DNA of 44,838 bases from Entrophospora sp. SA101 (taxonomy: Eukaryota > Glomeromycota > Glomeromycetes > Entrophosporales > Entrophosporaceae): assembly GCA_958430865.1 (NCBI GenBank), contig CAUDNR010004535.1:2522-47359 (forward strand), read 5' to 3'. A program made the translations under genes and the position numbers. Shown piece by piece: positions 23,073 to 40,000 of this stretch; positions within the stretch are counted from its first letter, which is position 1; each line of letters opens with the position of its first letter. The notes beneath the pieces are model-generated. The model was not told where the DNA came from. It was given only the letters and a program-made list of their open reading frames with translations, and searched no databases.

Positions 23073-23112
23073 GTTTTTTTTATTTGTTGTTTATTTCGTA
23101 AAAAATATTATT

Positions 23113-24275: not shown

Positions 24276-25973
24276 TTACTCATATAGTTCATTGTCACTA
24301 TCCATCCATTCATCATTTTTCTCAATTTCCAATTCTAACTTGTTTTTATCATAGTTATCTCCTCAGTCTTTAACTTGACTGTCTAGCACTCGTAATTTTA
24401 AGGGAGTAGTGGTGGATTGATAAAAGTTTTCGGGTTGAACTATTAATTTGTCATTTCTCGTAATATCTAAGTTGGTAAGTTGGTTATTAGAGACATCTAA
24501 AGAAATTAATTTTCTGTTTTCTAAAATATTTAACTCTTTTAGTTCATTACCCCCTAAATCTAAATGAGTTAAATTAACGATATTTGTGACTTCAATTTTA
24601 TTTATTAGTTGTCCGTTAACCGTGAGAGTTGTTAAATTTGGTTGATTTTTATATTCTGGGAAAGGATAATGATTTCTACGACCAATTCGTTCCAGTTTTA
24701 AAACTTCTAAGTCGCTTGTCTCATTAATGGTTAATTTATTTAATGAATACAAATAATCTAATTCTAATTCTTTTAGTGTTTGAGAAGGTATTATCTCTAA
24801 TTCTTTACCATAATACTCAGTGAAAAATAAACTTTTTAATTTAGGTAATTTTAAACTTCTAACATTTAATACTGAACCAGAGTGATTACTAAGTCTGAAA
24901 TTCAGAATATTTTCTTTCAGTTTGGTAATTTTTTGGTCTTTTTCTTGGGCTTCTTCGTAGAGTTCCCAGTTCTTTTCACCTTTGGCTTTTAATTCAGTAC
25001 TAAATTGTTCCATTAGTTGTTGCTTTTCTTTTTCTCATTTCCGGTAGAGTTGGCTTTTCTCAGTATGTTTTTCCTGCTCTAATTGCTGAATAGTTTTTGC
25101 AGAGTTTTCTTGTTTGGTTAATAAGTCCTGATAAGTTTGATTTTTACTTAATAATTCTTGGCTTTTCTCAGATAAAGTTTGCTCTTTTTTCTCTAATAAA
25201 AGGTTAATTTTCCTTAACTGTTCGTTGAATTGTTGGGCTTGTTCGGTCTGACTAACTTGTAACTGGTGGAGTTGGGAATTAGTTTCGGTTAATTGCTGGT
25301 CAAATTTTTGTTGCTCTTGCTTTCGTTGCTCTTGACTAGTGGTTAAGGCTTGCTTAGCAATAGTTAGTTGCTGGGTTAATTCATTAATCTGAGTTGCTTT
25401 AACTTTTAGTTGTTGCTCTTGTTCTGATTGAAGTGCTTGCCGTTCCTTTTGTCAGTCTTTGTCCTTGTTTTCTCAGTTTTTCGCTGTTTCCTTTCACTCC
25501 TTAATAACTTGGGCTTGCTGGGTTATTTCTTGATTTAAATAATTAATTCGAGCAGTAGATTTTTCTTGCTGTTGCTGGTAATTAGTTTTATCTTTGGCTC
25601 AGTTTTGTTCTAATTCACTGAGGAGTTTTTCAGCAGCTTTTTTACCCTTAATTTTTTGTTTGGCTAAATTCAGTAAAGAAGTTTCTAAATCAGTTATTTT
25701 TTGTTCCAGTAAAGGTTGGGTGGCTTGATAGTTATTTCGTTCCCGAGTGATAGATTGGAGAATATTTTCTTTTGCTAAGTCTTTTTCTACCCGGGACTGA
25801 TAAAGTTTTTGGTAATGGTGGACTTGGTTTTGGAGTTCTTTTATTTGGCGGTTTTCAGCTGGTTCTTTACCGGCTAATGGTTGAGTATTCAGATTACTTT
25901 GCTGATTTTGTCAGTAAAGATAAACTAAAACTGAGACAACAGCAACTGTTATTAATATTTCCTTGTTTTCCAT
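24276..25973 (-). CDS. N-anchored coiled coil with C-terminal LRR domain, 565 aa
   Basis: Starts MENKEILITVAVVSVLVYLYW, a single span at residues 4-22. A long Gln/Lys/Glu coiled coil follows (about 45-345). Six or so leucine-rich repeats come next (about 350-530; for example LDLGGNELKELNIL, LDVSNNQLTNLDI), then an acidic tail. If the N-terminus is the anchor, the LRR sits at the end of a long stalk. It is the last gene of the minus-strand series that begins near 36959, 13 bases after the preceding stop. Probable role: display of a binding domain away from the membrane; ligand unknown. Confidence 0.85.
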
Positions 25974-25986
25974 AAATTTTAATTTC

Positions 25987-26238
25987 TTAACTCCCACTTA
26001 ACATCCACAAGACAATTAACAGTAGCACACATATTCAAAATAAACCCCGATAAAAGGCTTCTTGCTTACGGTAATAGTCAATTGGCTTGTAAGCGGTTTC
26101 TTTGGCTTGCTTAGAGTAAGTGTTTCACTGTTGACTAGCTGAGTTTTCTAGTTCGATAGTTTTATTGGCGATAGGTTGTTTGACATTTCGTTCTCAAACT
26201 CCTTCGACTCATTCTTTAACGGCTGATTTGATTCCCAT
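25987..26238 (-). CDS. Small tail-anchored protein, 83 aa
   Basis: ATG at 26238 lies 4 bases after the preceding stop. The soluble part is MGIKSAVKEWVEGVW..., ending in one C-terminal span (FWICVLLLIVLWML) and SGS. Four Trp are encoded by TGA. The frame stays open upstream without a better start. Function unknown; part of the small-membrane-protein cluster. Confidence 0.65.
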
Positions 26239-26242
26239 AATT

Positions 26243-26899
26243 TTATTGGTGATATTTTGGTGTATTTTGGTTAAATAGTCAGACCGATAAGCAACCCAGA
26301 GCCAGAATTGTAATAATCGGTCAATAGTTAAAAGTAGTGGGTTCGTGATTATTAATCATTGCTAATTCTAATTGGGCATTTTTACCTTGGACTTGACTGA
26401 GTTTGTGGGCTAATTCTAACTTTTTTTTATTAATGGTCAGTAATTTGTTTTCTAGTCTTTTAATTTCACTAATTCCTTCATTTATGTTTAGTTCTAATTC
26501 GGTTTCTAAATCTTGTTTTTTTTCTAAGTAGTCGGCAAATTCTTTAATCTTGTCTAATCTGAGTTGTAAGATTTGTTGTTCTAACTGCTTAATCTGGGCT
26601 GGTAATTCTTCTAAATCAATTATTTTAGCTTGGGCAACTTGGAGACTTTGGAGATAGTTCTGACTAGTTTGAGCATGAAATTTCACTTGCTCTTGTAATT
26701 GGCTGATTTGTTGGCTGGGAGTAGGTTGCTGAGAGACTGGAATATCTAACTGCGATTTACTTTTTTGTAACGGAGTATTAGGCAACGGAGGAGCCACTGG
26801 GATATCACTCAGACTTTTACTTTTGCGTAAGTGAGAAGGCTTAATGCCCGGTTTTACTTTGGCTTTTAATTCTTGCTGTAAGTTATCTTTGTTAGTCAT
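26243..26899 (-). CDS. Tail-anchored coiled-coil protein, 218 aa
   Basis: The start is set at ATG 26899, overlapping the preceding stop by 8 bases; ATG 26908 is an in-frame alternative. The N-terminal third is Ser/Pro/Gln-rich and contains two similar short repeats (SKSLSDIPVAPPLP and SKSQLDIPVSQQP). A coiled coil follows (about 75-190) and a C-terminal span after a TGA-Trp (PIITILALGCLSVWLF). Function unknown. Confidence 0.75.
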
Positions 26900-27074
26900 A
26901 ATTATCATTATCTGAGTTTACCTCTCAGTCTTTGGCGTCTCAAAAGGTTTCTGATTTAGCTTTGCCCTTGCGTTCAATGATATCATCGGGTTTGGGAGCA
27001 ATAGTTTTTGGTTGGTTTTTTCAGTAGAGGTAAATCAATACTACTAAGGCAATTATTATTAAATATTTAGTCAT
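26892..27074 (-). CDS. Small N-anchored membrane protein, 60 aa
   Basis: MTKYLIIIALVVLIYLYW forms a single N-terminal span, followed by a polar Lys/Asp/Asn tail. It overlaps both neighbours by 8 bases (ATGACTAA-type junctions), showing translational coupling. The span resembles that of the coiled-coil LRR gene at 25973. Confidence 0.7.
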
Positions 27075-27312
27075 TATTTTTCTTTTTACTTTTTAATTTC
27101 TTGATTTTCAGCTCTTTATGGAATAAAGAACTTTGAATACTGTGTATTTCTTGGGCTAATTCATTAAGTTGTTGCTGCTCATGTCCGTTTTTTTTCTCTA
27201 ATTTAGCGGTTCGTCAGCCTAGTTTTAAGGAGTAATTGAAAAACATGGCTAACATGGCGAGAATAACTCCGCAAAGAGCCAAGCAGAGGTAAAATCAGTT
27301 GGTGCAGTCCAT
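27067..27312 (-). CDS. Small N-anchored protein with coiled-coil tail, 81 aa
   Basis: Begins MDCTNW-FYLCLALCGVILAMLAMFF (one span), then a Gln/Lys-rich helix and a run of Lys. It overlaps the next start by 8 bases. Function unknown. Confidence 0.7.
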
Positions 27313-27317
27313 AATTT

Positions 27318-27857
27318 TTATTCTTCTTTAATCGGTTGCAACAAACTAGTTAAACTTTCGCCAATTTGCCGATAAGCCTCATTTAACTTTTGGATTTCGT
27401 TAGTTCTTTGGGCTAAAATGGTTAAACTATTATGCTTACATTCGGAGGCTACTTGACTAATCTTTTTCGGACTAATTCCTTGCTGACAACAAGCCGATAG
27501 ACATTGGTAGTAAGCCACGGTGTTTTTTTTAGATTTCGGTTTTTTCTTACCATTAGCAACTGGCACTAAGGAAGTTGCTTTGGCACAGTTCGGACAGTAA
27601 GTCGGATGTTGGGCTAATTCTTCCAGTTTGTCAGTTGGGGAATAAGCCGTAGTTTTCTGAAAATCTTGCTGACATTTATCACAAGTATAATTCTGTTGTG
27701 AGTATTGGAATAATTGGGAGTTAGTTGGTAGATTAAGCATATTTGGTTTAGATTTTCTTGGGATTTGGGCTTGTAATTTATTTCAAAAATATTGGGAGTT
27801 ATGTTTAGTTATGAGCCTCATGGCTCTTTTGCCGATAGTTTTGCCGGTGTGCTTCAT
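27318..27857 (-). CDS. Zinc-ribbon protein, 179 aa
   Basis: A basic N-terminus (MKHTGKTIGKRAMRL) leads to a CDKC...CPNC ribbon (about residues 58-96), a Lys-rich linker (KKKPKSKKN), and a CLSACC...C segment that may bind a second metal. ATG 27857 is chosen because the frame stays open to it; ATG 27740 is an alternative. Possibly a nucleic-acid-binding factor of the element. Confidence 0.7.
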
Positions 27858-27885
27858 AATTTTTATAAATATTTCTCAAGTCAAG

Positions 27886-28050
27886 CTAATTTCTCGGTAA
27901 TTGAGTTAATTGACATTTTCAACAAATAAAAGAACCTCGTCACTCACTACCTCAGAGGCTTTCTTGCTGGCAGAGGAAGCAAATTTGCTTTTTCATAATT
28001 TCGATTAGCACTGGGAGAAAGGCAACTAGTAAACCATTACAGTATGACAA
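27886..28050 (-). CDS. Mini zinc ribbon with N-terminal span, about 54 aa
   Basis: From TTG 28050 the frame encodes a hydrophobic segment (GLLVAFLPVLIEI) and then a four-Cys ribbon (CFLC...CWKC). ATG 27996 would give only the 36-residue ribbon. Two Trp are encoded by TGA. The span-plus-ribbon design repeats at 35604-35822. Confidence 0.5.
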
Positions 28051-28080
28051 AAGAAGACTAGTTTTTAGCTCCCAGTTACT

Positions 28081-28209
28081 TTAAATAGTGCGAATATTAA
28101 AGGGTAGTAAAGTCAAAGAGGTGTTAATAAATGTTTCAATAGTTTGCTGAACTAATACTCCGCAGAGGATAGCCAAAGCGGAGCAAATTAACAGAGTAGG
28201 TGCGGACAT
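28081..28209 (-). CDS. Small membrane protein, 42 aa
   Basis: MSAPTLLICSALAILCGVL forms one span, followed by a short Thr/Leu-rich tail. It starts 6 bases after the preceding stop. Function unknown. Confidence 0.55.
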   Translation of the reverse strand: MSAPTLLICSALAILCGVLVQQTIETFINTSLTLLPFNIRTI

Positions 28210-28215
28210 AGGTTG

Positions 28216-28326
28216 TTAAAAAAAATCGTTTAGTCTTCGAAATTGACCCGAGCCAGTATTGGCTCAGTGGCGAAAATAAAAGCCGACTATTAAGCAAATT
28301 GAGAATCAGATAAAATATTTCGACAT
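28216..28326 (-). CDS. Small membrane protein, 36 aa
   Basis: MSKYFIW-FSICLIVGFYF span, then an Arg-containing tail. It lies between neighbours at 5-6 bases on each side. Another frame across this stretch is longer but breaks the operon pattern. Confidence 0.5.
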
Positions 28327-28331
28327 AGTGT

Positions 28332-28469
28332 TTAATATTCGTTAGTTTGGTTAGTTTGACTATTCTGCGAAAAGTCAAAGCTGTTTTTCTTGTTTGGCAT
28401 TAGTTCTATTATGTAGGGTAATAAATAACCGACTAAAATGCCTAAGGCAATATATTTGAGGTTTTTCAT
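28332..28469 (-). CDS. Small membrane protein, 45 aa
   Basis: MKNLKYIALGILVGYLLPYI span followed by a Gln/Asn/Thr-rich tail. The N-terminus resembles that of the gene at 30547-30648 (KYTYLALGIVAGLVIAY), suggesting paralogues. Confidence 0.6.
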   Translation of the reverse strand: MKNLKYIALGILVGYLLPYIIELMPNKKNSFDFSQNSQTNQTNEY

Positions 28470-28498
28470 AAGGTTTTTTGGTTAATTTTTGGTTTGAT

Positions 28499-28717
28499 TT
28501 ATTCTTCTTTTCAGAAGTAGGCAATTGCTAGTAGTAAAAAGATACCCAGAGCAATCGCAATTAAGGCTTTTTGGGTATTTTGACCGTAAGCAAAGTTTTC
28601 TTGTAACAGTTTCTTATACTCCGCACTTTTATTTTCAATAGTGTCTTTTAATTTTTCATCATAGAAGTTATTCAAGGCTCCTTTGAAATCGGGGAGATAA
28701 TCTTTTCAATTTACCAT
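28499..28717 (-). CDS. Small tail-anchored protein, 72 aa
   Basis: MVNW-KDYLPDFKGALNNFY, a charged helix, then a C-terminal span (ALIAIALGIFLLLAIAYF) and WKEE. It starts 1 base after the preceding stop. Confidence 0.7.
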
Positions 28718-28718
28718 A

Positions 28719-28925
28719 TTAGTCTAATTGCTCTTGATTTTTTATGTAATGATAAACAAATATCCCGACTACGGCGGTGGCTACTAAGGTGTAAGTAATC
28801 AATCGGGCAGTTTCCGAGTTCTGGGGAGCCAGAGCGGATAAACTACCATTTAAATCTTGAACCGTTTTAGCTAAATCAGTAGTAGTTACTACCTCATTAT
28901 TCTTGCGAGTTAGAGTTATTTCCAT
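28719..28925 (-). CDS. Small tail-anchored protein, 68 aa
   Basis: A polar N-terminal half (MEITLTRKNNEVVTTTD) and a C-terminal span (LITYTLVATAVVGIFVYHYI), then KNQEQLD. It overlaps the preceding gene by 29 bases. Confidence 0.75.
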   Translation of the reverse strand: MEITLTRKNNEVVTTTDLAKTVQDLNGSLSALAPQNSETARLITYTLVATAVVGIFVYHYIKNQEQLD

Positions 28926-29175
28926 AGTTGTTTAATTGTTCGGTTTGAGATTGCCGATTCTGAAATTTCTGAATGTTGTCCATTACCGGTCTAATTTCAA
29001 GGTTATTATTCGACTGACTTTTGCTTCTAATCTCTTTGAATTTCCAATAAGTTTGCCCCCGTTTATCAGTTCTAACTAGTCCTAATAATTTCTGATTATC
29101 AGTTTTGATAATAAAACTATTGGGATACTTGGGGTTCTCATTAGTTCACATGAGAATAGTTGAGAAGTCAGTCAT
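28897..29175 (-). CDS. Soluble protein of unknown function, 92 aa
   Basis: Polar, with no span. The N-terminal half looks like beta strands (NSFIIKTDNQKLLGLVRTD, QTYWKFKEIR). The C-terminal half is Gln/Asn-rich. It may be a small structural or nucleic-acid-binding protein of the element. Confidence 0.6.
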
Positions 29176-29218
29176 GAGTTTAATTCTATTATTAGGCAAG
29201 AATTAGGAATTAAGAAGT

Positions 29219-29383
29219 CTATTCTTCTTTTTTCTTGAATATCTTACCAGTTACTTTTTGTAAAATACCGGACTGATATAAGAAATAGCCGGCCGCTAAT
29301 CCGATTGCGAACATGGCTACTTTGCCAGTCGCTCAGGAAGTTCAGGAGTTATTGTTTTCTTCGTTGTTGTTTCGTGGATTCAT
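29219..29383 (-). CDS. Small membrane protein, 54 aa
   Basis: An Asn-rich N-terminus (MNPRNNNEENN), then one span (VAMFAIGLAAGYFLY) and a basic tail (GKIFKKKEE). Two Trp are encoded by TGA. Confidence 0.65.
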
Positions 29384-29400
29384 AATTTTAAATATTGGTT

Positions 29401-29577
29401 TTATTTTTTTAATTGTTGGATAACTAAGTAAGAAACTGCCACATAAATTCCAATGGCAGTTAAACCAATAGTGGCGTAAGTGAAGAGTTTCTGAGCCGAA
29501 TATTCTAAGTCTTCGCGAATCAGAATATTGCGTTTATTGCTAAATCTTTCTTGGGTTTCATTTAATTTTTCAGTCAT
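29401..29577 (-). CDS. Small tail-anchored protein, 58 aa
   Basis: MTEKLNETQERFSNKRNIL..., then a span (ATIGLTAIGIYVAVSYLVI) and QQLKK. ATG 29577 is preferred over an upstream TTG because it sits directly after the preceding stop (29579). Confidence 0.7.
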   Translation of the reverse strand: MTEKLNETQERFSNKRNILIREDLEYSAQKLFTYATIGLTAIGIYVAVSYLVIQQLKK

Positions 29578-29578
29578 A

Positions 29579-29710
29579 TTATTTTTGATTTTGTAATATT
29601 TGTTTGATTTCCTGTAACAGGGCAATAATTTGGGCTTGATTGACTTGTTGATTAGTTTTAAATTCTTGGATTTCCTTAATTAAGGGCGTGATATCAGGGA
29701 ACAAGGACAT
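29579..29710 (-). CDS. Small helical protein, 43 aa
   Basis: MSLFPDITPLIKEIQEF followed by a Gln/Ile/Leu-rich amphipathic helix. No span. It is packed 2 bases from both neighbours. Confidence 0.6.
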   Translation of the reverse strand: MSLFPDITPLIKEIQEFKTNQQVNQAQIIALLQEIKQILQNQK

Positions 29711-29712
29711 GG

Positions 29713-30129
29713 TTAGTATTTATTAGGTTCATCGGTTTGCTGTAAGTTATAATCAATTTGTTTTCGCTCATGGGAGAGCCGAATCGACTTAATGCTTTGG
29801 ACTTGGTTGGTTAAGTTAGTGAATTGCGAACTAGCATTGTTTTCTAAGTTCACTAGTCTTTGATTGAGAGTTTGCTGATTAGTTAATATTTGCTGTTGCA
29901 TAGTTAGAACTTGCGAAAGAGTTAATTGCATTTCGGCAATGGTTCCGCCCATTTGCGGTATCTTTTGACCAGTGAACTGTTCGAAGAGTAAAGGTAAAAA
30001 TGGCAGTGATTGACCGACCATTTTCATTAAACCGGAGGACTCAGGTTGAGTTCGATTATTCTGATTTAAATTGTCAAAGCTATTGTTTTCAGTTGGCTTA
30101 GTTTGATTGTTCGGTTGAAAGTTATTCAT
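29713..30129 (-). CDS. Gln/Asn-rich helical protein, 138 aa
   Basis: A disordered Asn/Gln-rich N-terminus, a short hydrophobic stretch (MVGQSLPFLPLLFEQF), then a Gln/Leu heptad region (LSQVLTMQQQILTNQQ). The stretch is too short for a certain span. In virus-like operons such a protein could be structural, but I recognise no family. Confidence 0.65.
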   Translation of the reverse strand: MNNFQPNNQTKPTENNSFDNLNQNNRTQPESSGLMKMVGQSLPFLPLLFEQFTGQKIPQMGGTIAEMQLTLSQVLTMQQQILTNQQTLNQRLVNLENNASSQFTNLTNQVQSIKSIRLSHERKQIDYNLQQTDEPNKY

Positions 30130-30131
30130 AA

Positions 30132-30293
30132 TTATTGAGTGGCTAAATTAATGATAAAGTTTAATGCGTAAGCTCCACCACCAATGGCGGGTAGGTATTT
30201 TAAATACTCGTTATCTTTTTTCAGCTGTTGTCCGTAGAAATAGAGACCGACACAAACGGCAGCTACTACTAATAGTAATACTTTTTTATCCAT
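30132..30293 (-). CDS. Small membrane protein with two hydrophobic segments, 53 aa
   Basis: MDKKVLLLVVAAVCVGLYFY, a short charged loop, then YLPAIGGGAYALNFII. This two-helix, Gly/Ala-rich small protein is reminiscent of phage coat or holin proteins only in gross form. Confidence 0.65.
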   Translation of the reverse strand: MDKKVLLLVVAAVCVGLYFYGQQLKKDNEYLKYLPAIGGGAYALNFIINLATQ

Positions 30294-30294
30294 T

Positions 30295-30543
30295 TTATAA
30301 ATTCTTACCTTTCAGTTGCTCCGAAAGTTTAAAACTTATTCGGTAGTAACGATAAGTATTGCCGTCTAAGGCACTTTGAATAGTAGTTCTTTTTTTGTGA
30401 AAGGCTCCGCAGTTGCCTAATTTGATAACTGCCCCATCTTTGGCTTTTTTTAAAGTTTGGAACAAGTCAGCAGCCACTAAGTCGTAAGCTGATTTAATTT
30501 GGGACTGATTATTAACAGTCTTCTTAACAGGCTTTTTTAACAT
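30295..30543 (-). CDS. HU-like DNA-binding protein, 82 aa
   Basis: The N-terminal helices (IKSAYDLVAADLFQTLKKA) are followed by VIKLGNCGAFHKKRTTIQ and a C-terminal RISFKLSEQLKGK, matching the HU/IHF layout (helical dimer part, beta arm, closing helix). It is divergent but of proper length. It probably bends or packages DNA of the element. A second HU-like gene lies at 32265. Confidence 0.7.
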   Translation of the reverse strand: MLKKPVKKTVNNQSQIKSAYDLVAADLFQTLKKAKDGAVIKLGNCGAFHKKRTTIQSALDGNTYRYYRISFKLSEQLKGKNL

Positions 30544-30546
30544 AAT

Positions 30547-30648
30547 TTATTCTTCTTTCTTGATTCAGTTCTGATAAGCGTAAGCTATTACTAAGCCAGC
30601 TACAATACCCAAGGCTAAATAAGTGTATTTGCTATCTTTTGGATTCAT
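30547..30648 (-). CDS. Small membrane protein, 33 aa
   Basis: MNPKDSKYTYLALGIVAGLV, one span, ending W-IKKEE. It is the first gene of the small-protein block and 3 bases before the HU-like gene. Similar to the product of 28332-28469. Confidence 0.55.
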
Positions 30649-31031
30649 ATTGTTTTAATTTTTAAATTGATTATTTTTCTATTACAAGGTAAGAATTCAG
30701 AAGAATATTTATTTATTAAAAATTATTTCAGTTGCCTATTTTAGGGAGAGCTGGAAAGTTGACTTTTAGTGAGAGCTTTCAAGGCTTTAACTTTTTAATG
30801 TTTTTCTGAAATTAGTCTGGTTTTTTTTCCGATACCGGTCAATTTACAGTGCTATATTTTTGATTTTAGGGAGTTGTTAAGTGCGGTGTGATAGGGGGTT
30901 TTTGACATGAACTACTACATAACAATTAGGAATGTAGTTGGACAATTTAGAAAATTAGCAAAAAAATTTAGGTGAGAATTTTAGTGAGATTTGGTTAGAA
31001 ATTCAGGAAAAATTTTTAGAAATCGGGAGGG
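30649..31031. other. Intergenic control region of the small-membrane-protein block
   Basis: About 380 bases without an ORF, upstream of the minus-strand block starting at 30648. It contains an inverted repeat (30914-30938), several GAGAGCT/AGCTTTC elements near 30750-30775 and AT-rich stretches. It probably holds the promoter. It splits the long series into two transcription units. Confidence 0.4.
30914..30938. repeat. Inverted repeat, candidate operator or recombination core
   Basis: ACTACAT and ATGTAGT flank 11 bases (AACAATTAGGA). The form suits a dimeric repressor site or the core of a tyrosine recombinase site; nothing shown here decides between them. Confidence 0.35.
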
Positions 31032-31538
31032 CTATTTTCTTTTGTTTTTCTTTAACGATTTTTGAATTGCTAATTCTTGGCATTCATCCTCTTCACTAAA
31101 TAAGCAAATTAGGTCTTTTAGGGAAGTTAGAACATTTTTGCCACTTTTCCGGTAAGTCTTGTGATTGGGGTCTAAAAGTAGAGCTTGAAAAAGGTTGTTA
31201 TGCTTAATAGGTTTGTTCTTTTCTAGTATTCCGAATAAACGGGCTTCTTGACTAAAAGTAATTTGTCAGACAAGTTTTCTTTTTAAATCATCAATCTCTT
31301 TTTTATTTCAATCAATTAGTTTACCAATACGAGACTTGATGTATTCACTTTTTACTTCATGGCAATTATTGGTATTTTCAGCAAACTCTTTTCAATCTCT
31401 ATTACTGCAATCTTGCATAACCATAAAAGAATTGGCAAGCAGTATTTTTGCTTCTTCCCTTTTTATGGCGTTAGTGAAGTCATCAGTATGAATGCAACTA
31501 ACAAACATTTCACTAAAATCAAAAAGAGTTTTAATCAT
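31032..31538 (-). CDS. Putative toxin partner of the Panacea-type antitoxin, 168 aa
   Basis: A complete ORF starting 6 bases after the antitoxin stop, so the two are almost certainly an operon. It contains three TGA-encoded Trp, is mostly helical and charged, and has no span or signal peptide. I recognise no domain. PanA-type antitoxins are known to pair with unrelated toxins, so the assignment as toxin rests on position only. Confidence 0.55.
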
Positions 31539-31544
31539 AAATGC

Positions 31545-32018
31545 CTATGCTCTCAAAGAATTAGTAATGGTTGTTAGTTTAATTGGCTTTGATTTCAAAC
31601 TATCATTTAAGGGTTTACGAGTTATCTTTCAGGCTTTATCTTTAACTTTTTCGTAAAAGTCTAGTTCATTTTTTTTAACTTCATAACGCTTGTATTGTTT
31701 ATGAATGTTATCTAAGTGATTAATAACTACTTCATTATCAATATCTTTTACTTTGTCAAATAATCCTTGGTAAGTCTCATTTTTTTCGAAGTAATTATCC
31801 ATAGCATAAAAAACTGAGTCAAGAGTTGGTCCAGCTCGTCAGGCTTGAAATTCTTCCTCGAAAAGGAGAGCATTTTCCTTTTTCAATATTTCTAAATAAG
31901 AAAGATAAAGTAAGTTCTGCATGATTGAGTTGGTTTCAATACCTTTTTCATAAAAATATTTAGCTACTGATAACGGCTCAATATTTAAATTCTTTAATTT
32001 AGTTGCTCGTGTTGCCAT
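31545..32018 (-). CDS. Panacea-domain (SocA/DUF4065-like) antitoxin, 157 aa
   Basis: Residues 14-65 show the family pattern: VAKYFYEKGIE, MQNLLYLSYLEIL, then ALLFEEEFQAWRAGPTLDSV, the classic FEEEFxAWxxGP signature. Panacea proteins act as antitoxins that neutralise diverse toxins and also occur in phages. It lies directly before an unknown ORF in the same direction. The C-terminal part is Lys-rich. Confidence 0.85.
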
Positions 32019-32025
32019 GATATAA

Positions 32026-32265
32026 TTATTTTACCTCTATCTCATAATCCACTAATAAATTAGCCCCCTGCTTACCTTCTTCGACCGTGAAGTTTAGTTC
32101 TTGACCTTCTTTTAATCAACTTCATCTTTCTTGGCTAATTTTACCGGAGAAAACAAAAATACTGTCCCGATTGTCTAACTCTAAGATTAAGTAGTGATTA
32201 CCATTTCTATCAGTTAATTCTTTGCGTTGATTAATGGTGGATTGGATAGTGCGAGTAAGGTTCAT
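32026..32265 (-). CDS. Small soluble beta-rich protein, 79 aa
   Basis: A predicted small barrel: NHYLILELDNRDSIFVFSG, then WSW-LKEGQELNFTVEEG and LLVDYEIEVK. The alternation resembles OB-fold single-strand-binding or cold-shock proteins, but no signature is definite. Its ATG overlaps the HU-like stop (TAATG), so the two are translationally coupled. It may be a DNA-replication accessory protein. Confidence 0.6.
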
Positions 32266-32567
32266 TATTTTTTGCGATTAATCTCTTCTTTTAAACCAGT
32301 TGCGAATTTACATTTTGGCACTCTTTTAGCGGGAACTTTCATTTTTTTCTTAGTTTGCAAGTTCATGGCTATTCTGGGTTTAGTAATCGTAGTTTTAAAG
32401 GAGTAATAGCCTAAAAAGCGAATTTCTTCACCTTTGACTAAGGCTTTTTGGGTTTCTTCCAATAAACTCTCAATTATTTTGGTTACTTGATTTTGGGGAG
32501 TTTTGGTTTTTTTAGATATTCGTTCAGTTAGTTGTTTTTTACCAGTTATTAAGGCTTTTGTTACCAT
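32265..32567 (-). CDS. HU/IHF-family DNA-binding protein, 100 aa
   Basis: N-terminal helix pair (KQLTERISKKTKTPQNQVTKIIESLLEE), then the hallmark GEEIRFLGYYSFKTT and a Lys/Arg-rich arm. The length matches HU. The C-terminal helix is KFATGLKEEINRKK. Probably an architectural protein for recombination or packaging with the neighbouring recombinases. Confidence 0.85.
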   Translation of the reverse strand: MVTKALITGKKQLTERISKKTKTPQNQVTKIIESLLEETQKALVKGEEIRFLGYYSFKTTITKPRIAMNLQTKKKMKVPAKRVPKCKFATGLKEEINRKK

Positions 32568-32595
32568 ATATTATTTATTTTGGCTTGGTTATTGG

Positions 32596-33195
32596 CTACA
32601 CTGGCCTAAATTTCACTAAATTACTTAATTCTCCATCTCGGATATAAAGGGCGGTTGTGCTAACTTTACTATGCCCTAATACTTTCTGCAATATTGGTAA
32701 AGGCATTCCGGAAATAGCTTGATGGGTGGCAAAGCAACGGCGGAGAGTATGGGGTGCTAACTCTATGCTATCAGCAATATTCATTTCTTTTTTTACTTGC
32801 TCGCAAAACTTGCTAAAAGTGAAACGATTAGTTTGCTGGGGTTGTCAGTTTCTTTTTTTTAATTCTTTGATTATTTCTTCTCCGACATAAACTCAGCGTT
32901 CTTTTTGACCTTTGCCCCTTAATAGGTATAAGTTTTTATAAGCCGATTCTTGGTTTTCCAAGGATAAATCAAAACTAAGAGCTTCACTAACTCTTAATCC
33001 GACTTTCCAGCAGAGTAGAAATAAGCATTCCATTTCCGACTTCTTATATTCTCCTTTTTTATTCGGTCTACTAATAATATAATCCCAAACTTGCTGTAAA
33101 AGTTGGTTAGTTGGCAAGACTGACAAAGTTTTTTTGCTTTTACTAATATTTCTTTTCATGAAGTAAATGTGACTGGCATCCCTTTTTCTTTCCAC
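32596..33195 (-). CDS. Tyrosine recombinase, catalytic domain only, 199 aa
   Basis: The Arg (VGLRVSEAL), Lys region (GKGQKER), HTLRRCFATH, LGHSKVSTT and final Tyr (ALYIRD) are all present, so the active site is complete. The usual N-terminal core-binding domain is absent: the start is GTG 33195 or ATG 33159 and upstream frames are closed. It is either a truncated integrase or one of the compact types. It lies between the Prim-Pol and HU-like genes. The frame ends at TAG 32596-32598. Confidence 0.85.
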
Positions 33196-33280
33196 GAGTT
33201 ATTTCTTTCTTTACTAATTTAGGTTAGATTGGGAGTAAAGTATAAGTTAATTTTAACCTTACCTTCCACTTTATAAGCCA

Positions 33281-34078
33281 TTAGGAGGAAAGAATTTTGT
33301 TTTTCTTTTCCTGATAAATCTTTCAATTTTTCTGATGTTGTTTTCCTGCTAAATGAGATTTAATTCTGGCAGTAGTTTTTTCAAAATAGACTAGGCAAAT
33401 ATAGCAAGTGTTTAGGTTTTCTTTTTGTGGGTGCCGAGCTATTTGCTGTTCTAATTGCTCTTTCTTTTGACAATATTTTTGTTCGGGGCTTATTTTCTTA
33501 GGTTTCGGGTAATAAAGTTCTAAATTTCTAATGCTTTCTACTCCTTTTTTTCCTCAGGGAGTAGTGAAAATATTCCGCTTGGTTAAAAAGGTTTGCAGTT
33601 CTTGCAAATTCTCCATTTTTAAACTTCATTTTTGGTTAACTCTCCCTTTTAAACTATACCGAGTTCCTTGCTGGTGAATAGAACCAATTCCGACAATAAA
33701 CCGACCTTTGCTGTGGATTTCGCCAATCGGTTCTCCGTCTTGGTTGACTAATCAGCAAGATTTCGGTAATTCTTTCAACAAAATATAACGATGGATACCT
33801 TTGTGAGTTTGGATATAGCGACTATCTTTGATTCTTTCCTTAGCTCAAAGGTCATCCAAATCTATCACAATAAAGTAATAATTACCAATTAGAGTGCCAG
33901 TTCGTAAAGAATATTCCTGGTTTAGTTCTAATAGTTTTTCAATACTGCGATACTCAGGATAGTATTTATTCCAATTCTTTACCAAAGATTTCTTAAATTT
34001 AGTTGGTAAAAGAATATGCTTCTTGGCTAATCCTCGCAGATATTTAGTTTCTGATTTAGTTAATTGATTATCTTTCAT
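33281..34078 (-). CDS. Prim-Pol (AEP superfamily) primase with C-terminal zinc finger, 265 aa
   Basis: All three motifs of the bifunctional primase/polymerase domain are visible: LIGNYYFIVIDLDD (acidic pair near residues 73-76), THKGIHRYILL, and GEIHSKGRFIVGIGSIHQQG (about 112-132), matching the domain's GGYVVxPPSxH pattern. After a linker with many Lys/Gln, the C-terminus carries CYICLVYF...HLAGKQH, a C2H2 finger close to the U1/JAZ type of eukaryotes. The protein should start DNA synthesis on an element replicon. No helicase was seen beside it. Five Trp are encoded by TGA. Confidence 0.87.
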
Positions 34079-34170
34079 TTTCTATATGTAGGTGTCTCTT
34101 GTAATGAACACTAGGAGAGAAGACTAAGATAAATATCCTACTCTCAAAGAAGCAAAATATAATTAGCGGA

Positions 34171-34566
34171 GTAAAAAAATAAAAATTCCCCTCCTCTCCT
34201 GTGGTTTTTCTTTTTGTATCTCAGGAGAACCTTTGAAAACTTCCTAAGCTTCTTTGGCTTATGTTTAACCTCATAAGCAAGGCTCCTAGTGCCAGTGGCA
34301 CACTTAGATTGCTCTAAGCCTCTACCCTAATCTTTGGTCTGTTTTCATAATTGACGAACTTATCTTCATTCGGGTTATTCTGTCACTCAGATTGCTGATT
34401 AGTTTTTCATCCCGTTTGTTAATTTCCCTGGGAGAGGTCTTCCTTACTGATTACTCAGCCCTAACTTATCACTGAGGGAAGCAGTTTTGTTGGGTTTTTT
34501 ACCCTCCGGTTAAAGGTAGCTCCAGCCAAGGTTTAGCCTCTTTTGGAGCAGATTAGTTGGCGTTTT
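34171..34566 (-). ncRNA. Structured non-coding RNA of unknown type
   Basis: This stretch lacks ORFs, is visibly GC-richer than its surroundings, and is full of strong stems: 34289-34301 (GTGCC/GGCAC), 34257-34278 (GCTTATG/CATAAGC), 34195-34228 (TCTCCTG/CAGGAGA), and 34519-34549 (GCTCCA/TGGAGC). The last crosses a possible GCCAA/TTGGC pairing at 34525-34561, suggesting a pseudoknot. On the minus strand the 34195-34228 stem is followed by GGGAATTTTTATTTTTTT, a good terminator. It does not match tmRNA, SRP RNA, RNase P or the group I/II intron cores I know. The strand is inferred from the terminator and the neighbouring genes. Confidence 0.6.
34185..34228 (-). terminator. Terminator at the 3' end of the structured RNA
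   Basis: TCTCCTG...CAGGAGA stem followed on the minus strand by a T-rich tract (GAATTTTTATTTTTTT). It probably ends the non-coding RNA before the Prim-Pol gene. Confidence 0.5.
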
Positions 34567-34593
34567 TAATAAAAAATTATTTCTTCAGTAAAT

Positions 34594-34728
34594 TTAAAAT
34601 TCTTGGTCTGGCAATTCTTGATAGTCAATTCAATGCTGTTGAGCTTGGGGGCAAATGTATTGTTGTTGGGGGTCTTCAATCGCCCTTTTACAGCCTCAAC
34701 AGCCATTTTTGTAGATTAGTTGATTCAT
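34594..34728 (-). CDS. Mini zinc-ribbon protein, 44 aa
   Basis: MNQLIYKNGCW-GCKRAIED, later ICPQAQQHW. It has a C-x2-C pair and a Cys/His pair, two Trp encoded by TGA, and an acidic end. It begins 5 bases after the recombinase stop and ends about 30 bases before the structured RNA. Confidence 0.6.
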
Positions 34729-34733
34729 AAACA

Positions 34734-35600
34734 TTAAATTAGAGTTCCTTTTCACAACCGACTATAATCCTGATAAACCGAAGCCCAATCATACTGGATA
34801 TATTTCTCAGTAGTTTGCACGCTAGAATGCCCGAGTAATTGTTGGATAGTTAGTAATTTGGCTCCATTGCGGTGAAGTCAGGTAGCGAATGACCTTCGAA
34901 AAGTATGGGGAGTAATATTTTTCTTAATTTCGGCTTTTTCAGTTCGAGCTTTCAGTAATCAGCGAATATATTCCGCTTTGATGGGATTACCTCGTTGATT
35001 AGTGAATAAGTAATTAGGAGAAATAGGATTAAAGTGCTTAATCAGAAATTCCGGTAATAAAACAAACCGCACTTTATTACCTTTACCTAAGATTCTTAAT
35101 TGGTTAGTTTGCCAATCTTGATGTTTGACATTTACTAGTTCATTAATTCTTAAACCAGAATAAAGGAGGAAGTCCAAGATTAGGTTATTCCTTTGGTGAA
35201 TTGCTAAATTCTTTTCCACCTTGGTTTCCTTTAACAAACTTAACTCTGCTTCATTTAGAGTAGCAAAGAATTTGCGTTGAGTTTTGGGAATAAGTCCCGC
35301 AATTCGGGTTCATTCTACTTCTAATTTCTTAAATTTAATGTAAGAATTCAAAGCATGTTGTTGGGTTTTTAAACTGGTGGCTTGGTAGTTTTTTAAGTTG
35401 GTGCGAAAATATTCTTTCAGATTAGCAGTGTTGAATTCTTGGGGGAATTTATCTAAGACATTGAGGTAAAGTCGGATAGTATTAGCAGATAAATTCTTGT
35501 CTTGTAAATATTCAGTATATTGGAGGATATTATGGTTATTAGTCATAATATTTTGTGGCTGATTAGCCCATTTATTGGCTCAGTAAGTAGTTCAGTTCAT
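34734..35600 (-). CDS. Tyrosine recombinase (XerC/D-like), 288 aa
   Basis: The N-terminal SAM-like core-binding domain (YTEYLQDKNLSANTIRLYLNVL) is followed by the catalytic domain: SGLRINELVNVKHQDW (Arg), LGKGNKVRFVLL (Lys), HTFRRSFATW, LLGHSSVQTTEKYI (His and Tyr). The catalytic set is complete. ATG 35600 is chosen because it lies 3 bases after the upstream stop; ATG 35546 is an alternative. Candidate for integration of the element or for inversion of the LRR locus at 43.7-44.8 kb. Confidence 0.9.
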
Positions 35601-35603
35601 GAT

Positions 35604-35822
35604 TTATAAGGCAATATCTAGTTGGGGTTTAGGTTTTTGGCAGTTTTGGCAGCGTTGCCCGGTGATTACTCGTTCTTTTCAGTGGATAAAGACTATTTCT
35701 TTTAGTGGTTTTAATTGCTTACATTGGGGACATTTAACTTGGATTAGTCAGAGCGATAAAAAGGCTAATGATAAGCCGAGAATTATTCCCAAGATTAGGG
35801 TAAATATTATTAGGGCTGTCAT
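35604..35822 (-). CDS. Membrane zinc-ribbon protein, 72 aa
   Basis: One N-terminal span (IIFTLILGIILGLSLAFLSL), then CPQCKQLKPL and CQNCQKPKPQ, a four-Cys ribbon in the cytosol or outside. Two Trp are encoded by TGA. Translationally linked to the recombinase (TAAATCATG). Confidence 0.7.
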
Positions 35823-35824
35823 GG

Positions 35825-36097
35825 CTAAATTTCTTGGTCTTCTTCCTCGGACTGATAATTATCTACCAAAGAGCATAATCTTTCTTCGGTTAAAGGCTGA
35901 CCAAACTCATCATATTTTCCTTTGATTACTTTATCTTCTAATAATTTCAAGGCTTCTTTGAGGTTTTCCACTAAATCATAAAGGGTGTCGCTATCTCAGG
36001 TTTCGGGATTATCAGGGTCAATTGCTTAGGCTTCATTAATTTGGTGTAATATTTCTAATTTATTTTCTATTTTTTTGTGTAGTGATTTTTTAGTCAT
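35825..36097 (-). pseudogene. Acidic small protein gene with an in-frame TAA
   Basis: The frame from ATG 36097 reads MTKKSLHKKIENKLEIL..., then TAA at 36026-36028 (codon 24), and continues open for 66 more codons (DSDTLYDLVENLKEALKLLE...) to TAG 35825-35827. Both halves look coding, have the same style and sit in an operon with no space for another gene. Likely a fresh nonsense mutation or a sequencing error; the downstream half lacks a good start. Confidence 0.6.
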
Positions 36098-36101
36098 AAA
36101 A

Positions 36102-36377
36102 TTATTTCTGATTGGTTTTTTTGATTTGGTTTATTCAATCGGCTATTGCTTGGCTTTTTTCATCTTTGGCTTGTTCTTTTCGAGCAAAATCTAAAATAAT
36201 CTGTTCTTGACAGTAAGTAACTAAAAGAACTTGTCATTTATCTTGGCACTGGTTCAGGCATTTAGTCTGGGGATTGGTTAAGCAGTCTGTTCTAATTATC
36301 AATAATTGTCAAGTAGTTTGGCAATAAGAGCAATGGAATTTCAATTTCTTTTCAATGGTGTTAAGGTTTTTGGTCAT
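36102..36377 (-). CDS. Zinc-ribbon protein, 91 aa
   Basis: MTKNLNTIEKKLKFHCSYCQTTW, a later CLTN...CLNQC, and a C-terminal Lys-rich helix. Four Cys in two pairs suggest one zinc. It overlaps the upstream gene by 17 bases. Function unknown. Confidence 0.65.
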
Positions 36378-36663
36378 GGTTTTCTAATTCTTGTCAGTCT
36401 TGTAAGACTAATAAACCACTCTTTTTCTTATGACAAGTAAAGAAGTATCGCTTGTCGAGATATTGATTTTGCTCTAAGATTTGTAGCAACTGCTGATTAA
36501 CTAGATTGGCGTAAACAAGAATGGTTTCAGGCTGGGATGAATTAGTTTCTTCGGGTAAGACTTTTAACTGGTAATTAATCTGACCATAAAACTCATTCTT
36601 TTTGTAAACTTTGCGCAGTTCTTTACTAATAATCTTAGCCGTTAGTTCGTGGAGTTTAGGCAT
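36361..36663 (-). CDS. Small protein, possibly OB-fold, 100 aa
   Basis: Alternating beta-like segments (EFYGQINYQLKVLP, ETILVYANLV, KRYFFTCHKKKSGLLVLQDW) with a central helix resemble single-strand DNA-binding OB folds. The support is weak. It starts 2 bases after the preceding stop and ends with a TGA-Trp extension. Confidence 0.6.
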
Positions 36664-36665
36664 GG

Positions 36666-36959
36666 TTATTGGATAAGAATTTCCCCTTTTAGAGAACAGA
36701 GTTTACAGTTTGGTGGGGGTTGCTGGGGAAATTTAATTCAGCCCGAGCCATCATCACACTCGGAACAAGGACTATCTTTATTAAGGTAGCGACTGTCATT
36801 TAAAGAGCAACCTTGGCAGTAATCATAACTCTTAGATTGGGAACAGGTGAAATTGTTGCCACAACCGAGGCAGTTTTTTCTAACTAATTTGGTTTTTTCT
36901 CTCTTTTGGATGTCAAGGCGAGAGAAAGAAACCCCGTTAAGTATTGGCTTTTCTGTCAT
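36666..36959 (-). CDS. Multi-CxxC zinc-finger protein, 97 aa
   Basis: Cys pairs CLGC, CSQS..YCQGC, CSEC and CKLC recall the DnaJ-type zinc centre with four repeats, although spacing differs. No J domain. It is the first gene of the 36.9 to 24.3 kb series, divergent from the LRR-LRAT gene. Confidence 0.7.
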
Positions 36960-37042: not shown

Positions 37043-40000
37043 ATGGTAAACGCCCAAGAGTGATTGGATAAAGAGTATCCGCTAGAGACAAGAGCCTCAA
37101 TAAAAAACCTATACATTAGCGAAAAAGAGTTGGAAGGTCACCTAGATTTAAAGGGTTTCACAAATTTAGAAAAATTAGATTGTTCCCATAATCAGCTCGC
37201 TGAATTAGATTTAACCGGCTTAGTTCAACTAGAAAAAATTAATTGCAATGACAACTATTTAAATAATTTCGATTATCTATCCTTGAATCCTAATAAATTA
37301 ACTTACCTAAACATTAGTGATAATAATCTTCCAAGTCAAGACCTAACTTGTTTTAGTCACCTTGCCAACTTAGAATATTTGTGAGTTGGAGGAGATGATA
37401 AAAAAAAATTTCAACAAGGTATTTACAATCGTTTTTATGGTTCTCTAGAATCTCTAAAATACTTAAACAAATTAGAGAGAGTTTTTATTAGTAATACTGA
37501 TATTAATAATGGGGTTAATTACCTACCTAATAGTATTAGAAGAATTTCTTATTCGACTAATGAAAGACCAGAAAGTAAAGTAGGAGAAATAGCGGAACAA
37601 TTAAGTCACTTTCTTAGCAGAGAAATTAACCAAGATTGAAAAAATATTCATTCTGAGTTTGATGAGCAAAAACAAGATGGGTGAAAATATTTAGACTTTA
37701 ACTACCAACAAGTTGAAGAATGAATTAAAGCAGGACTGCAACCTAATGATTATCACTTTGCGGCTTATTTAAGATGAAAAGGTCATAATCCTCAACAGGA
37801 TTTAAATTGAGAAGAGTTAAGAAAGGAAAATAGAAATGCCCAAAAATGGTTGGATCAGGAATATCCTTTAAAAAAAAGAAAAGAAGTAAATTGATTAGAC
37901 ATCAGCAGAAGTGGGTTGGAAGGAGAACTAATTATTGAAAATTTTCCTAAATTAGAAAGGTTAGATTGCTCAAGAAACCAACTTACTAATATAAAAATCG
38001 ATAATCTTCCTAGGCTTAATCACTTTGATGCCTATTACAATAAACTTAGTACCTTAGTTATAAATAATTGTCCAGAGATTAGTTATTTTGATATTGCAAA
38101 TAACTTTCTTTCTAACTTAGATTTTCTTGATAAACTAAACAATAACAAGTTGATTAGGTTATACATGAGTAATAATGATTTTCTCCGCCAGGATATAGCC
38201 ATTTTTAGTAAATTTATTAGTTTGGAGGAACTTCGAGCATCAGGTAATAATTTTTATGGAAACCTACAATCTTTAAAAAATTTGAAAAAATTAAAGAATT
38301 TAATCGTGGCCGATACAGAAGTAGATAGTGGTTTTGAATATTTGCCTGACAACTTGAGCGGAATTTCTTCAATTCTCTTGAAAGAAGATCCAAAAAAGGA
38401 CACTAATGGTTTTAAATTGGTAGGGTGGACAGAACCAACTAAAGTAAAAGGAAATGTTTTTAAATATTCTTCTGCTCCGTCTTATGATTTTAAATTCTGG
38501 AAAGAGGCTCAACCTTATTTTAAATGACTAAAAGAAGAGTTAGAAAAAATCAACCCTGAGTTAAATATTTATGATGTATTGAGTAATGTTTTCTTTAACG
38601 TAAGAACTGGCGACTTTGAAGGCGATATACAAGGATTAATTTCTTTAATACAAATTAATAAATTTATCATTGAAGAAAAAGAACAAGAAATCAATTTCCT
38701 TAAACTTAGAATTCAAGAGTTAACCGGTTTAATCAAAAACCATTGAGAAAGAGTACACCGCACTTATCTTTGCTGTGTTTCTGGAGAAGAAGAGAAAGAA
38801 TTGCTAGAAAAACTAATAAGAACTCGCATCGAACTCACCAAATTCAAAAAGCAAGGACTTGGTTCTTTTGACTATCGCAAGAAATGCCGAGAATATGAAA
38901 GGGATTGCTGAGAAATAGAAGAAGAATTGGAGAATAAGTTAGAGAATAGATTAAAGAAAAAAGTTCTAGAAGGCGAATCAATAAGCAAACTAAGTGATGA
39001 TACTATGAATGAAATAAGAAGTATCCTTACTGACTGCGAAGACATAGCCAACTGGCAATTAGAACTAGAAGAAAAAACTAATATTAGATCTCTACTTATA
39101 GAGGAGAGGAAAAAAATATCTTGATTAACTAATATTGGTAATATATCGTGGAAAGACAACAGTAATTATTTACAGAAAGAGAAAAATGAGAAACTAGTCA
39201 CTTTTCAACAAAACGAAGAAAATGATAATAGTAATAAGAAGATAATTGAATTATTGATTAAGAAAAGTAAAAAACAGTTAGGAGGGGATATAGAGAAAAT
39301 ATCTTTTTTTGATACTTGGTTTAATGATAACTGTGCGATGGTAATTAGCAAGAATGATAAACTGACTGGGAGTAATAATTACAGTCTCTGAATAGTAGTA
39401 TATGAACCTGCTTTCGGAAAAACTAAAGCAAAAATTAACTTAACAAAAGTTGTGGAAAAATTACCAAAAGTTAGGGAAGCATGAGAAGAAGTAACAAGAT
39501 ATTTCAAATATATTATACTACGTAGCGAACATCCAGCTGCAGAGATGTATAACAATATTTATACTTTTGATTTGCCATCACTTTCCCAGAATTATAAAAA
39601 CGTAGCAAGGAGAAAAATAACTTTTTTGTCTCAAACAAACCCTAACGATTATATTAAACCTTATGATATTGTCAAAAGAAAGATTGATAAGTTTGGTATG
39701 ACTCACCATTATGCTGTTTACTTAGGAAATAATGAAGAAGGAGTGCCAGAAGTAGTTCATATTTACAACTTAGAAGAAGGAAAAAAAAGCGGAAAAGATT
39801 TGGGAGCTAGAATTGATACTTGGGAAAGATTTTTAGATGGTAAAAGAGAGGTAGAAATCTGTCATCCTTTTGTCCCGTTCAAAAGACCTGAATTAATCCG
39901 AGAACATATCGAAATAGCAGTCAAAGCTGGATATGGTAAGGGAGAGTATCATTTACTCAAGGACAACTGTGAGCATTTTGCTACCATGTGTGTCTATGGT

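What the first reader, a model, noticed from the sequence alone, without database searches (positions are those of the whole stretch)
24276..36959. A probable undescribed mobile or virus-like element: Prim-Pol, recombinases, HU proteins and about a dozen mini membrane proteins
Seen: about 35 minus-strand genes packed with overlaps or gaps of a few bases. They include a Prim-Pol primase, two tyrosine recombinases, two HU-like proteins, a Panacea-type antitoxin pair, a structured RNA, at least six zinc-ribbon proteins and a run of 33-83-residue single-span proteins, ending in membrane coiled-coil proteins. Known: primase plus integrase plus small coat-like membrane proteins occur together in integrative plasmids and membrane-containing or filamentous viruses. 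Inference: a replicating integrative element or provirus of mollicute endosymbionts, with the small proteins as virion or secretion-channel parts. No capsid or packaging ATPase was recognised.
Basis: partly seen in the sequence, partly recalled or inferred. Interest (0 to 1): 0.88.

Follow-up and report, generated by a model that had tools for sequence, protein, structure and literature searches.

The report
Virus-like integrating element of fungal endobacteria
A stretch of about 20 kb in a wall-less bacterium that lives inside a soil fungus looks like a mobile, possibly virus-like genetic element whose row of tiny membrane proteins recurs in the same order elsewhere but resembles nothing known, so it may be a new kind of bacterial virus or DNA-transfer device.

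Summary
The window is contig C2028 of the Entrophospora sp. SA101 (mycorrhizal fungus) assembly: DNA of a mollicute-related endobacterium. The gene cluster is real, but its left end is wrong. A sister copy on C293 shows that it runs to 17307, about 19.7 kb. Window and C293 share 23 genes, 20 collinear (shuffle maximum 12), with codon divergence typical of genes. Nine contigs carry membrane-module genes in the same order and strand; three near-full gyrB suggest about three bacterial lineages. C293 has a rolling-circle Rep where the window has a pRN1-like primase-polymerase, so replication is swapped and the membrane module kept. The main recombinase is shared with loci that carry a terminase or capsid-like genes. 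No capsid, packaging ATPase, Zot/pI ATPase or conjugation gene was recognised in the element; scans of IMG/VR, INPHARED and GTDB genomes found no relatives. The second HU is weak, the structured RNA unsupported, no att repeats found. Best reading: an integrated, replicating, probably virus-like element whose membrane module makes a capsidless or filamentous particle. Mobility is well supported by comparison; excision was not seen; the particle is inferred.

The parts
36666..36959 (-). g01, Cys-rich small protein; first gene of the element here
   Evidence: ORF; homologue ahead of the module on C293
35604..36663 (-). g02-g05, small and Cys-rich proteins of the integration module
   Evidence: g02, g03 shared with C293; g02 with C37; g03 with C555
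34734..35600 (-). g06 (Y1), tyrosine recombinase, probable integrase
   Evidence: PF00589 1.4e-26; copies at 45-68% identity on C555, C37, C61, C293, C1304, C1387, C1178
34079..34594 (-). non-coding stretch called a structured RNA; not supported
33281..34078 (-). g08, primase-polymerase with C-terminal C2H2-type zinc finger
   Evidence: 110 related proteins
32596..33195 (-). g09 (Y2), second tyrosine recombinase, catalytic part
   Evidence: PF00589 4.5e-19; 73% identical copy on C366
32265..32567 (-). g10, HU
   Evidence: PF00216 2.7e-20
32026..32265 (-). g11, possible cold-shock-type nucleic-acid-binding protein
   Evidence: CSD 0.00074, below its cut-off
31032..32018 (-). g12-g13, Panacea-type antitoxin and partner
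   Evidence: SocA_Panacea 7.6e-5, below its cut-off; pair also on C792
30295..30543 (-). g15, HU-like by eye; first module gene shared with C293
28081..30293 (-). g16-g26, core of the mini membrane module (36-138 aa)
   Evidence: 11 of 11 have homologues in the same order on C293
30547..30648 (-). g14, 33-aa single-span protein; at another place on C293
26892..28050 (-). g27-g30, Cys-rich and single-span proteins
   Evidence: g28-g30 shared with C293; g29 weakly like Rz spanin (0.0059)
26243..26908 (-). g31, coiled-coil protein with C-terminal span
   Evidence: 64 related proteins; hits on C1734, C1459, C1088, C1178, C2013, C295, C544, C293, weak on C539
25987..26238 (-). g32, tail-anchored 83-aa protein
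   Evidence: 73% identical to C293; hits on C1088, C544, C1734, fragment on C923
24276..25997 (-). g33, membrane-anchored coiled coil with C-terminal LRR
   Evidence: LRR_4 0.001, below its cut-off; homology to C293 weak, clearer over 61 aa with C37
23561..24191 (-). g34-g35, HigB toxin and HTH antitoxin
   Evidence: PF05015 6e-14, PF01381 8.9e-8; another HTH pair at the same place on C293
17307..23072 (-). g36, 1,921-aa coiled-coil membrane protein; last gene of the element
   Evidence: homologues on C293 (36% over 769 aligned positions) and C544; LPP leucine zipper 1.2e-8

Best explanation
It is an integrated, temperate, virus-like element of mollicute-related endobacteria. The Y1 recombinase inserts it into the chromosome and takes it out (inferred from its family). 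A primase-polymerase, or in sister copies a rolling-circle Rep, starts its replication (families shown, activity inferred). HU and other small DNA-binding proteins condense the DNA (inferred). The conserved membrane module (about a dozen single-span mini proteins, tail-anchored proteins and long membrane-bound coiled coils) assembles in the only membrane of this wall-less cell and carries the DNA out, wrapped in protein-studded membrane or as a filament, without a capsid (inferred). Toxin-antitoxin pairs keep the element in the cell (inferred).
For: Conserved order: 20 of 23 genes collinear with C293 against a maximum of 12 in 20,000 shuffles; each of 23 pairs scores above 500 of 500 shuffles and codon positions 1/2/3 are 56/67/41% identical. 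Nine contigs with module genes in one order and strand, with three near-full gyrB in the assembly. Replication genes swapped: Prim-Pol in the window, Rep of the ORF2/G2P family on C293 (1.1e-12), Rep also ahead of module genes on C544 and C2013. Y1 shared with loci that carry a terminase (C555, 3.3e-20) or capsid-like genes (C37, C61). Short single-span proteins of 30-90 aa are a named inovirus trait (passages of PMC6813254). Relatives in endobacteria of several fungi.
Against: No att repeats, empty site or circular form seen. No Walker A protein in the element as called, so no pI/Zot or packaging ATPase. None of 12 mini proteins scanned against PHROGs has a convincing family; weak hits: Rz-like spanin for g29 (0.0059), and a tail protein for g36 (3.5e-5) that may only reflect its coiled coil. 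The second HU is unproven. Tblastn of Rep, g31 and Prim-Pol against INPHARED: no match.
Confidence: 0.5

Rival explanations
1. A replicating integrative plasmid or phytoplasma-PMU-like mobile unit that makes no particle; the membrane module is cargo that remodels the bacterial surface for life inside the fungus.
For: About 20 kb, replication and HU genes in conserved order, as in PMUs (passages of PMC3743221); LRR and giant coiled-coil proteins; no virion gene recognised.
Against: The module of about 20 genes is kept in order while the replication genes are swapped; the recombinase is shared with prophage-like loci.
Confidence: 0.25
2. A satellite or worn-down relative of the phi29-like prophages in the same bacteria, packaged by their capsids.
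For: Shared g02, g03, Y1, Prim-Pol and Y2 genes with C37, C555 and C366; terminase and connector genes nearby on C555 and C366.
Against: The large conserved membrane module would be unexplained; module copies were read in full only on C2028 and C293, and neither has a capsid-like gene.
Confidence: 0.12
3. A conjugative element whose membrane proteins form a DNA channel.
For: Many membrane proteins; the Rep of C293 could act as a relaxase.
Against: No VirB4/TraG-type ATPase: no Walker A protein in the element.
Confidence: 0.06
4. A fixed chromosomal surface or symbiosis island, not mobile.
For: Long coiled coils and LRR proteins; g31 relatives in several fungal hosts.
Against: Nine contigs for about three lineages, different neighbours on C2028 and C293, Rep or Prim-Pol ahead of the module on four contigs, Rep pieces with stops on C2013 and C544 as in decaying copies.
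Confidence: 0.07

Closest known systems
Inoviruses and plectroviruses (filamentous phages)
   Same: Short single-span proteins of 30-90 aa; in sister copies a Rep of the ORF2/G2P family; recombinase and toxin-antitoxin genes
   Different: No pI/Zot ATPase; about 20 kb; long coiled-coil proteins; the window copy has Prim-Pol instead of Rep
Plasmaviridae (Acholeplasma phage L2)
   Same: Mollicute host, genes on one strand with overlaps, integrase, no capsid gene
   Different: No shared protein except the recombinase; L2 is 12 kb and has no Prim-Pol or Rep annotated
Phytoplasma potential mobile units (PMUs)
   Same: About 20 kb, several copies, replication and HU (himA) genes in conserved order
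   Different: PMUs carry dnaG, dnaB, ssb and the IS3 gene tra5; here Prim-Pol or Rep and tyrosine recombinases
phi29-like prophage loci of the same assembly (C37, C61, C366, C555)
   Same: Share Y1/g02/g03 or Y2 genes; C37 and C366 also have a Prim-Pol
   Different: They carry a terminase (C555), a connector (C366) or capsid-like genes (C37, C61), none of which was found in the window element
pRN1 plasmid primase-polymerase (ORF904)
   Same: Same Prim-Pol family (3.5e-6; fold)
   Different: Here a 265-aa protein with a zinc finger and no helicase part; the element is otherwise unrelated

Membership tests
Inoviridae / filamentous phages | pI (Zot-like, FtsK-HerA) morphogenesis ATPase, the only conserved marker (PMC6813254 passages) | tested here: not met
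   No Walker A motif in the called proteins of the window element; on C293 one incidental match inside the g36 coiled coil
Inoviridae / filamentous phages | Short structural proteins of 30-90 aa with one membrane span | tested here: met
   11 such proteins, function untested
Inoviridae / filamentous phages | Rolling-circle replication protein | tested here: inconclusive
   Present on C293, C544, C2013; absent from the window copy, which has Prim-Pol
Plasmaviridae | Proteins homologous to Acholeplasma phage L2 beyond the integrase | tested here: not met
   tblastn: recombinases only (6.8e-14, 9e-13); g19 at 0.004 over 27 residues taken as chance
Plasmaviridae | Enveloped capsidless particle released by budding | not testable with these tools
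   Needs particles
Phytoplasma PMU | dnaB, dnaG, ssb and tra5 genes | tested here: not met
   None among the family hits of the scanned proteins
Integrative mobile element (general) | Site-specific recombinase plus replication gene, several insertion places | tested here: met
   nine contigs
Integrative mobile element (general) | Attachment sites, empty site or excised circle | tested here: inconclusive
   No att repeats found; no empty site or reads available
Tailed phage (phi29-like) | Capsid, portal/connector and packaging ATPase in the element | tested here: not met
   None by Pfam or PHROGs in the proteins scanned

The most novel reading that the evidence does not exclude
A new lineage of capsidless temperate viruses of fungal endobacteria: interchangeable replication starters (primase-polymerase or filamentous-phage-type Rep) joined to a virion module of about 20 collinear genes with no known relatives, which makes a membrane-wrapped or filamentous particle without a morphogenesis ATPase of its own.
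Probability: 0.4. Interest if true: 0.88.

Novelty: new variant of a known kind. Interest (0 to 1): 0.72.

Why it matters
Mollicute-related endobacteria are reported to be rich in phage content and XerC/D genes and to have plastic genomes (passages of PMC10507103 and PMC11423566), but nothing I saw in print describes such an element. This gives a defined, repeated unit to look for, makes the question of what rearranges these genomes testable, and offers a candidate for a new virus type in wall-less bacteria that live inside fungi.

Tried and rejected
Boundary at 24.2 kb: rejected, because g36 follows collinearly on C293 and C544. Structured RNA: not supported. Attachment repeats near 17.3, 24.2 and 37.0 kb and at the C293 ends: none convincing. 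Plasmaviridae membership: rejected. Capsid identity of the 323-aa protein of C37: AlphaFold failed (pLDDT 31, three sequences); only a weak profile hit to a major capsid protein remains (6qvk, E = 0.033; a heat-shock protein ranks above it at 0.027; that 6qvk is phi29 is recalled). IMG/VR scans with Prim-Pol, its alignment and g32: no relatives. GTDB genome scans with Prim-Pol and its alignment: none. INPHARED tblastn with Rep, g31 and Prim-Pol: none.

What the count of nine leaves out. I counted contigs with at least one of g17, g22, g31, g32, g36 and at least two tested element genes. Dropped single-gene hits: C543 (twice), C571, C918, C923, C539, C340, C1916, C2027. Also not counted: C458 and C1593 (Prim-Pol and a g28-like protein in window order, but a ParA plasmid-like setting), C37 (g02, Y1, Prim-Pol, short g33 match), C792 (Prim-Pol remnant, Panacea pair), C366 (Y2 before Prim-Pol, the reverse of the window order), C715 and C1908 (Rep only or with a recombinase). 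C1178 (start) and C295 (start) may be two halves of one copy. Apart from C2028 and C293, the module copies were placed by search coordinates and not read. Pairs were picked by position for the weakest genes; g33, g30 and g14 barely exceed the shuffles (217/182, 57/48, 58/42).
Full report
WHAT IT LIES IN. The window is contig C2028 (47,359 bp) of a 101-Mb assembly. A protein from a contig of that length is filed under Entrophospora sp. SA101, a mycorrhizal fungus (P0105). Open frames need TGA=Trp, and gyrase, RNase P and tRNA-Trp genes lie to the left, so this is DNA of a mollicute-related endobacterium (MRE). Three contigs hold a near-full gyrB: C2028 itself, and C293 and C1609 at 87 and 86% to the window's; C1556 and C1965 hold only an 80-residue piece. 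I take this as about three MRE lineages.

THE OBSERVATION. The tight minus-strand run is real: 36 genes from 36959 to 17307, 26 of 35 gaps at most 20 bp or overlapping, 90% coding. Pfam supports two tyrosine recombinases, one HU, a near-threshold Panacea antitoxin and a below-threshold Prim-Pol. The Prim-Pol is firm on other grounds: its family profile (30 sequences) hits ORF904 at 3.5e-6, and an AlphaFold model (pLDDT 71, pTM 0.53) matches 3m1m first (3.3e-6, TM-score only 0.38), then phage NrS-1 primase-polymerase at 0.03-0.06. D73, D75, G94, H96 and nearly always E120 are conserved; that these are the metal-ligand positions is recalled. Its C-terminal C2H2 finger resembles spliceosomal U1C/U11 fingers, weakly (0.31 by sequence; 0.04-0.7 by fold). 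The second HU and the structured RNA are not supported (66, 67, 71).

A SISTER COPY FIXES THE EXTENT. On C293 the same genes run from at least 36570 to 13377. In the order test 23 genes are shared and 20 form one collinear chain; the best of 20,000 shuffles was 12. In a second test on 23 pairs (g30 in place of g36) each pair scored above all 500 shuffles, and identity over 1,997 codons is 56/67/41% at positions 1/2/3, the mark of selection on protein, though many of these genes have only 33-83 codons. Both chains end with a giant coiled-coil membrane protein (1,921 and 1,747 aa), so the element is about 19.7 kb here and at least 23.2 kb there. Just before it the window has a HigB toxin and HTH protein and C293 another pair with an HTH_37 protein. 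g02/g03, g14 and g32/g33 differ in place between the two.

REPLICATION IS SWAPPED, THE MEMBRANE MODULE IS KEPT. The Prim-Pol search had no hit on C293, and no g10 or Panacea homologue appeared in the C293 stretches searched. C293 begins instead with a rolling-circle Rep (PF23343 REP_ORF2-G2P 1.1e-12; phrog_3419 1.3e-8; motifs FLTLTF, HxH and YxxxY seen) and an ERF protein (3.9e-19). Rep also lies ahead of module genes on C544 and C2013, there in pieces with stops. Its 63 relatives include three proteins of the Glomus versiforme MRE, one of CE_OT135 and one of 'Ca. Moeniiplasma glomeromycotorum', besides fungal assemblies and metagenomes.

HOW MANY COPIES. Contigs with at least one of g17, g22, g31, g32, g36 and at least two tested element genes number nine: C2028, C293, C1734, C544, C1459, C1178, C295, C1088, C2013. 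On these nine, the tested genes (Rep or Prim-Pol, g17, g22, g28, g31, g32, g36, and on C293, C1734 and C1459 a recombinase between g22 and g28) keep one order and strand; the window's Y2 stands elsewhere. Cases left out are listed under Tried and rejected. g31 has 64 relatives, in RV_VA103A and in Ambispora, Gigaspora and Entrophospora assemblies; DhMRE, mread185 and GBAus27B, which appear in the Prim-Pol list, do not appear in the g31 list, which fits an accessory element but rests on a word-limited search.

KINSHIP WITH PROPHAGES. Y1 has copies at 45-68% identity on C555, C37, C61, C293, C1304, C1387 and C1178. On C555 it stands near a terminase (phrog_2150 3.3e-20; PDB packaging proteins 5hd9 and 7jqq at 0.003 and 0.012; that these are phi29 gp16 is recalled). 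On C37 and C61 it stands near a 323- or 309-aa protein preceded by a 95- or 105-aa one, possibly capsid and scaffold (0.033 to a capsid chain; structure failed). On C366 a Y2 copy at 73% follows an upper-collar connector gene (8.4e-8), with a Prim-Pol further on. So integration genes are shared between tailed-phage-like loci and the membrane-module elements.

HOW IT MOST LIKELY WORKS. Shown: the families of the recombinases, Prim-Pol, Rep and one HU; conservation and order of the module; several contigs and neighbours; exchange of replication genes. Inferred: integration and excision by Y1, DNA synthesis, condensation by HU, and a membrane or filament particle made by the module. Filamentous-phage traits given in PMC6813254 (passages) are met in part (short single-span proteins; Rep in sisters), but the one conserved marker, the pI ATPase, was not found. 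Plasmavirus L2 offers the nearest way of life (whole text of PMC12662186) but shares only the recombinase. Phytoplasma PMUs (passages of PMC3743221) are the nearest alternative without a particle.

WHAT IS NOT KNOWN. No att site, empty site or circular form was seen. Twelve mini proteins scanned against PHROGs gave no convincing family; the best was Rz-like spanin for g29 (0.0059). Literature: searches (listings only) and passages of two MRE genome papers mention phage content and XerC/D but no such element; one further MRE genome paper was not held, and most subscription journals are not covered.

Noticed in passing
G000 C366:4137-9378 and 15528-16352 (L011, L012): Prophage-like locus of the endobacterium with a phi29-type upper-collar connector (phrog_2038 8.4e-8), scaffold- and capsid-like neighbours, a Y2 copy, ParA-like protein, Prim-Pol and ERF (1.1e-26).
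   Followed up: partly
G000 C555:12643-17174 (L032): Y1 copy (68%) beside a terminase (3.3e-20) and, by eye, RuvC-like and SprT-like genes.
   Followed up: partly
G000 C543:26827-26964 and 80797-80934 (L041, L042): Isolated g22 homologue (54% over 46 aa) in two 98.8% identical stretches of low-ORF DNA without other element genes; perhaps element DNA in the fungal nuclear genome.
   Followed up: partly
G000 C1387:21187-28764 (L037): Y1, g02-like and neighbouring element genes stand about 4-5 kb from a eukaryotic COG4 gene (3.6e-28): transfer into the fungal genome or a chimeric contig.
   Followed up: partly
window 30787-30898 and C792 (L023:3548-3659): A 112-bp non-coding stretch after the Panacea pair is 79% identical on C792, where the same pair follows a Prim-Pol remnant.
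   Followed up: no
window 2113-8322 (-): One 2,069-aa ORF holds both GyrB and GyrA domains (PF00204 1.8e-37, PF00521 1.7e-104): a GyrB-GyrA fusion.
   Followed up: partly
window 37043-40240 (+): 1,065-aa LRR protein with a C-terminal LRAT domain (1.2e-9) next to the element; LRR proteins are frequent on the related contigs.
   Followed up: no
window 33281-34078: Prim-Pol fused to a spliceosome-like C2H2 zinc finger, an odd partner for a bacterial primase.
   Followed up: partly
window 23041-23409 (+): 122-aa plus-strand ORF with two spans in the gap before g36; no family above its cut-off.
   Followed up: no
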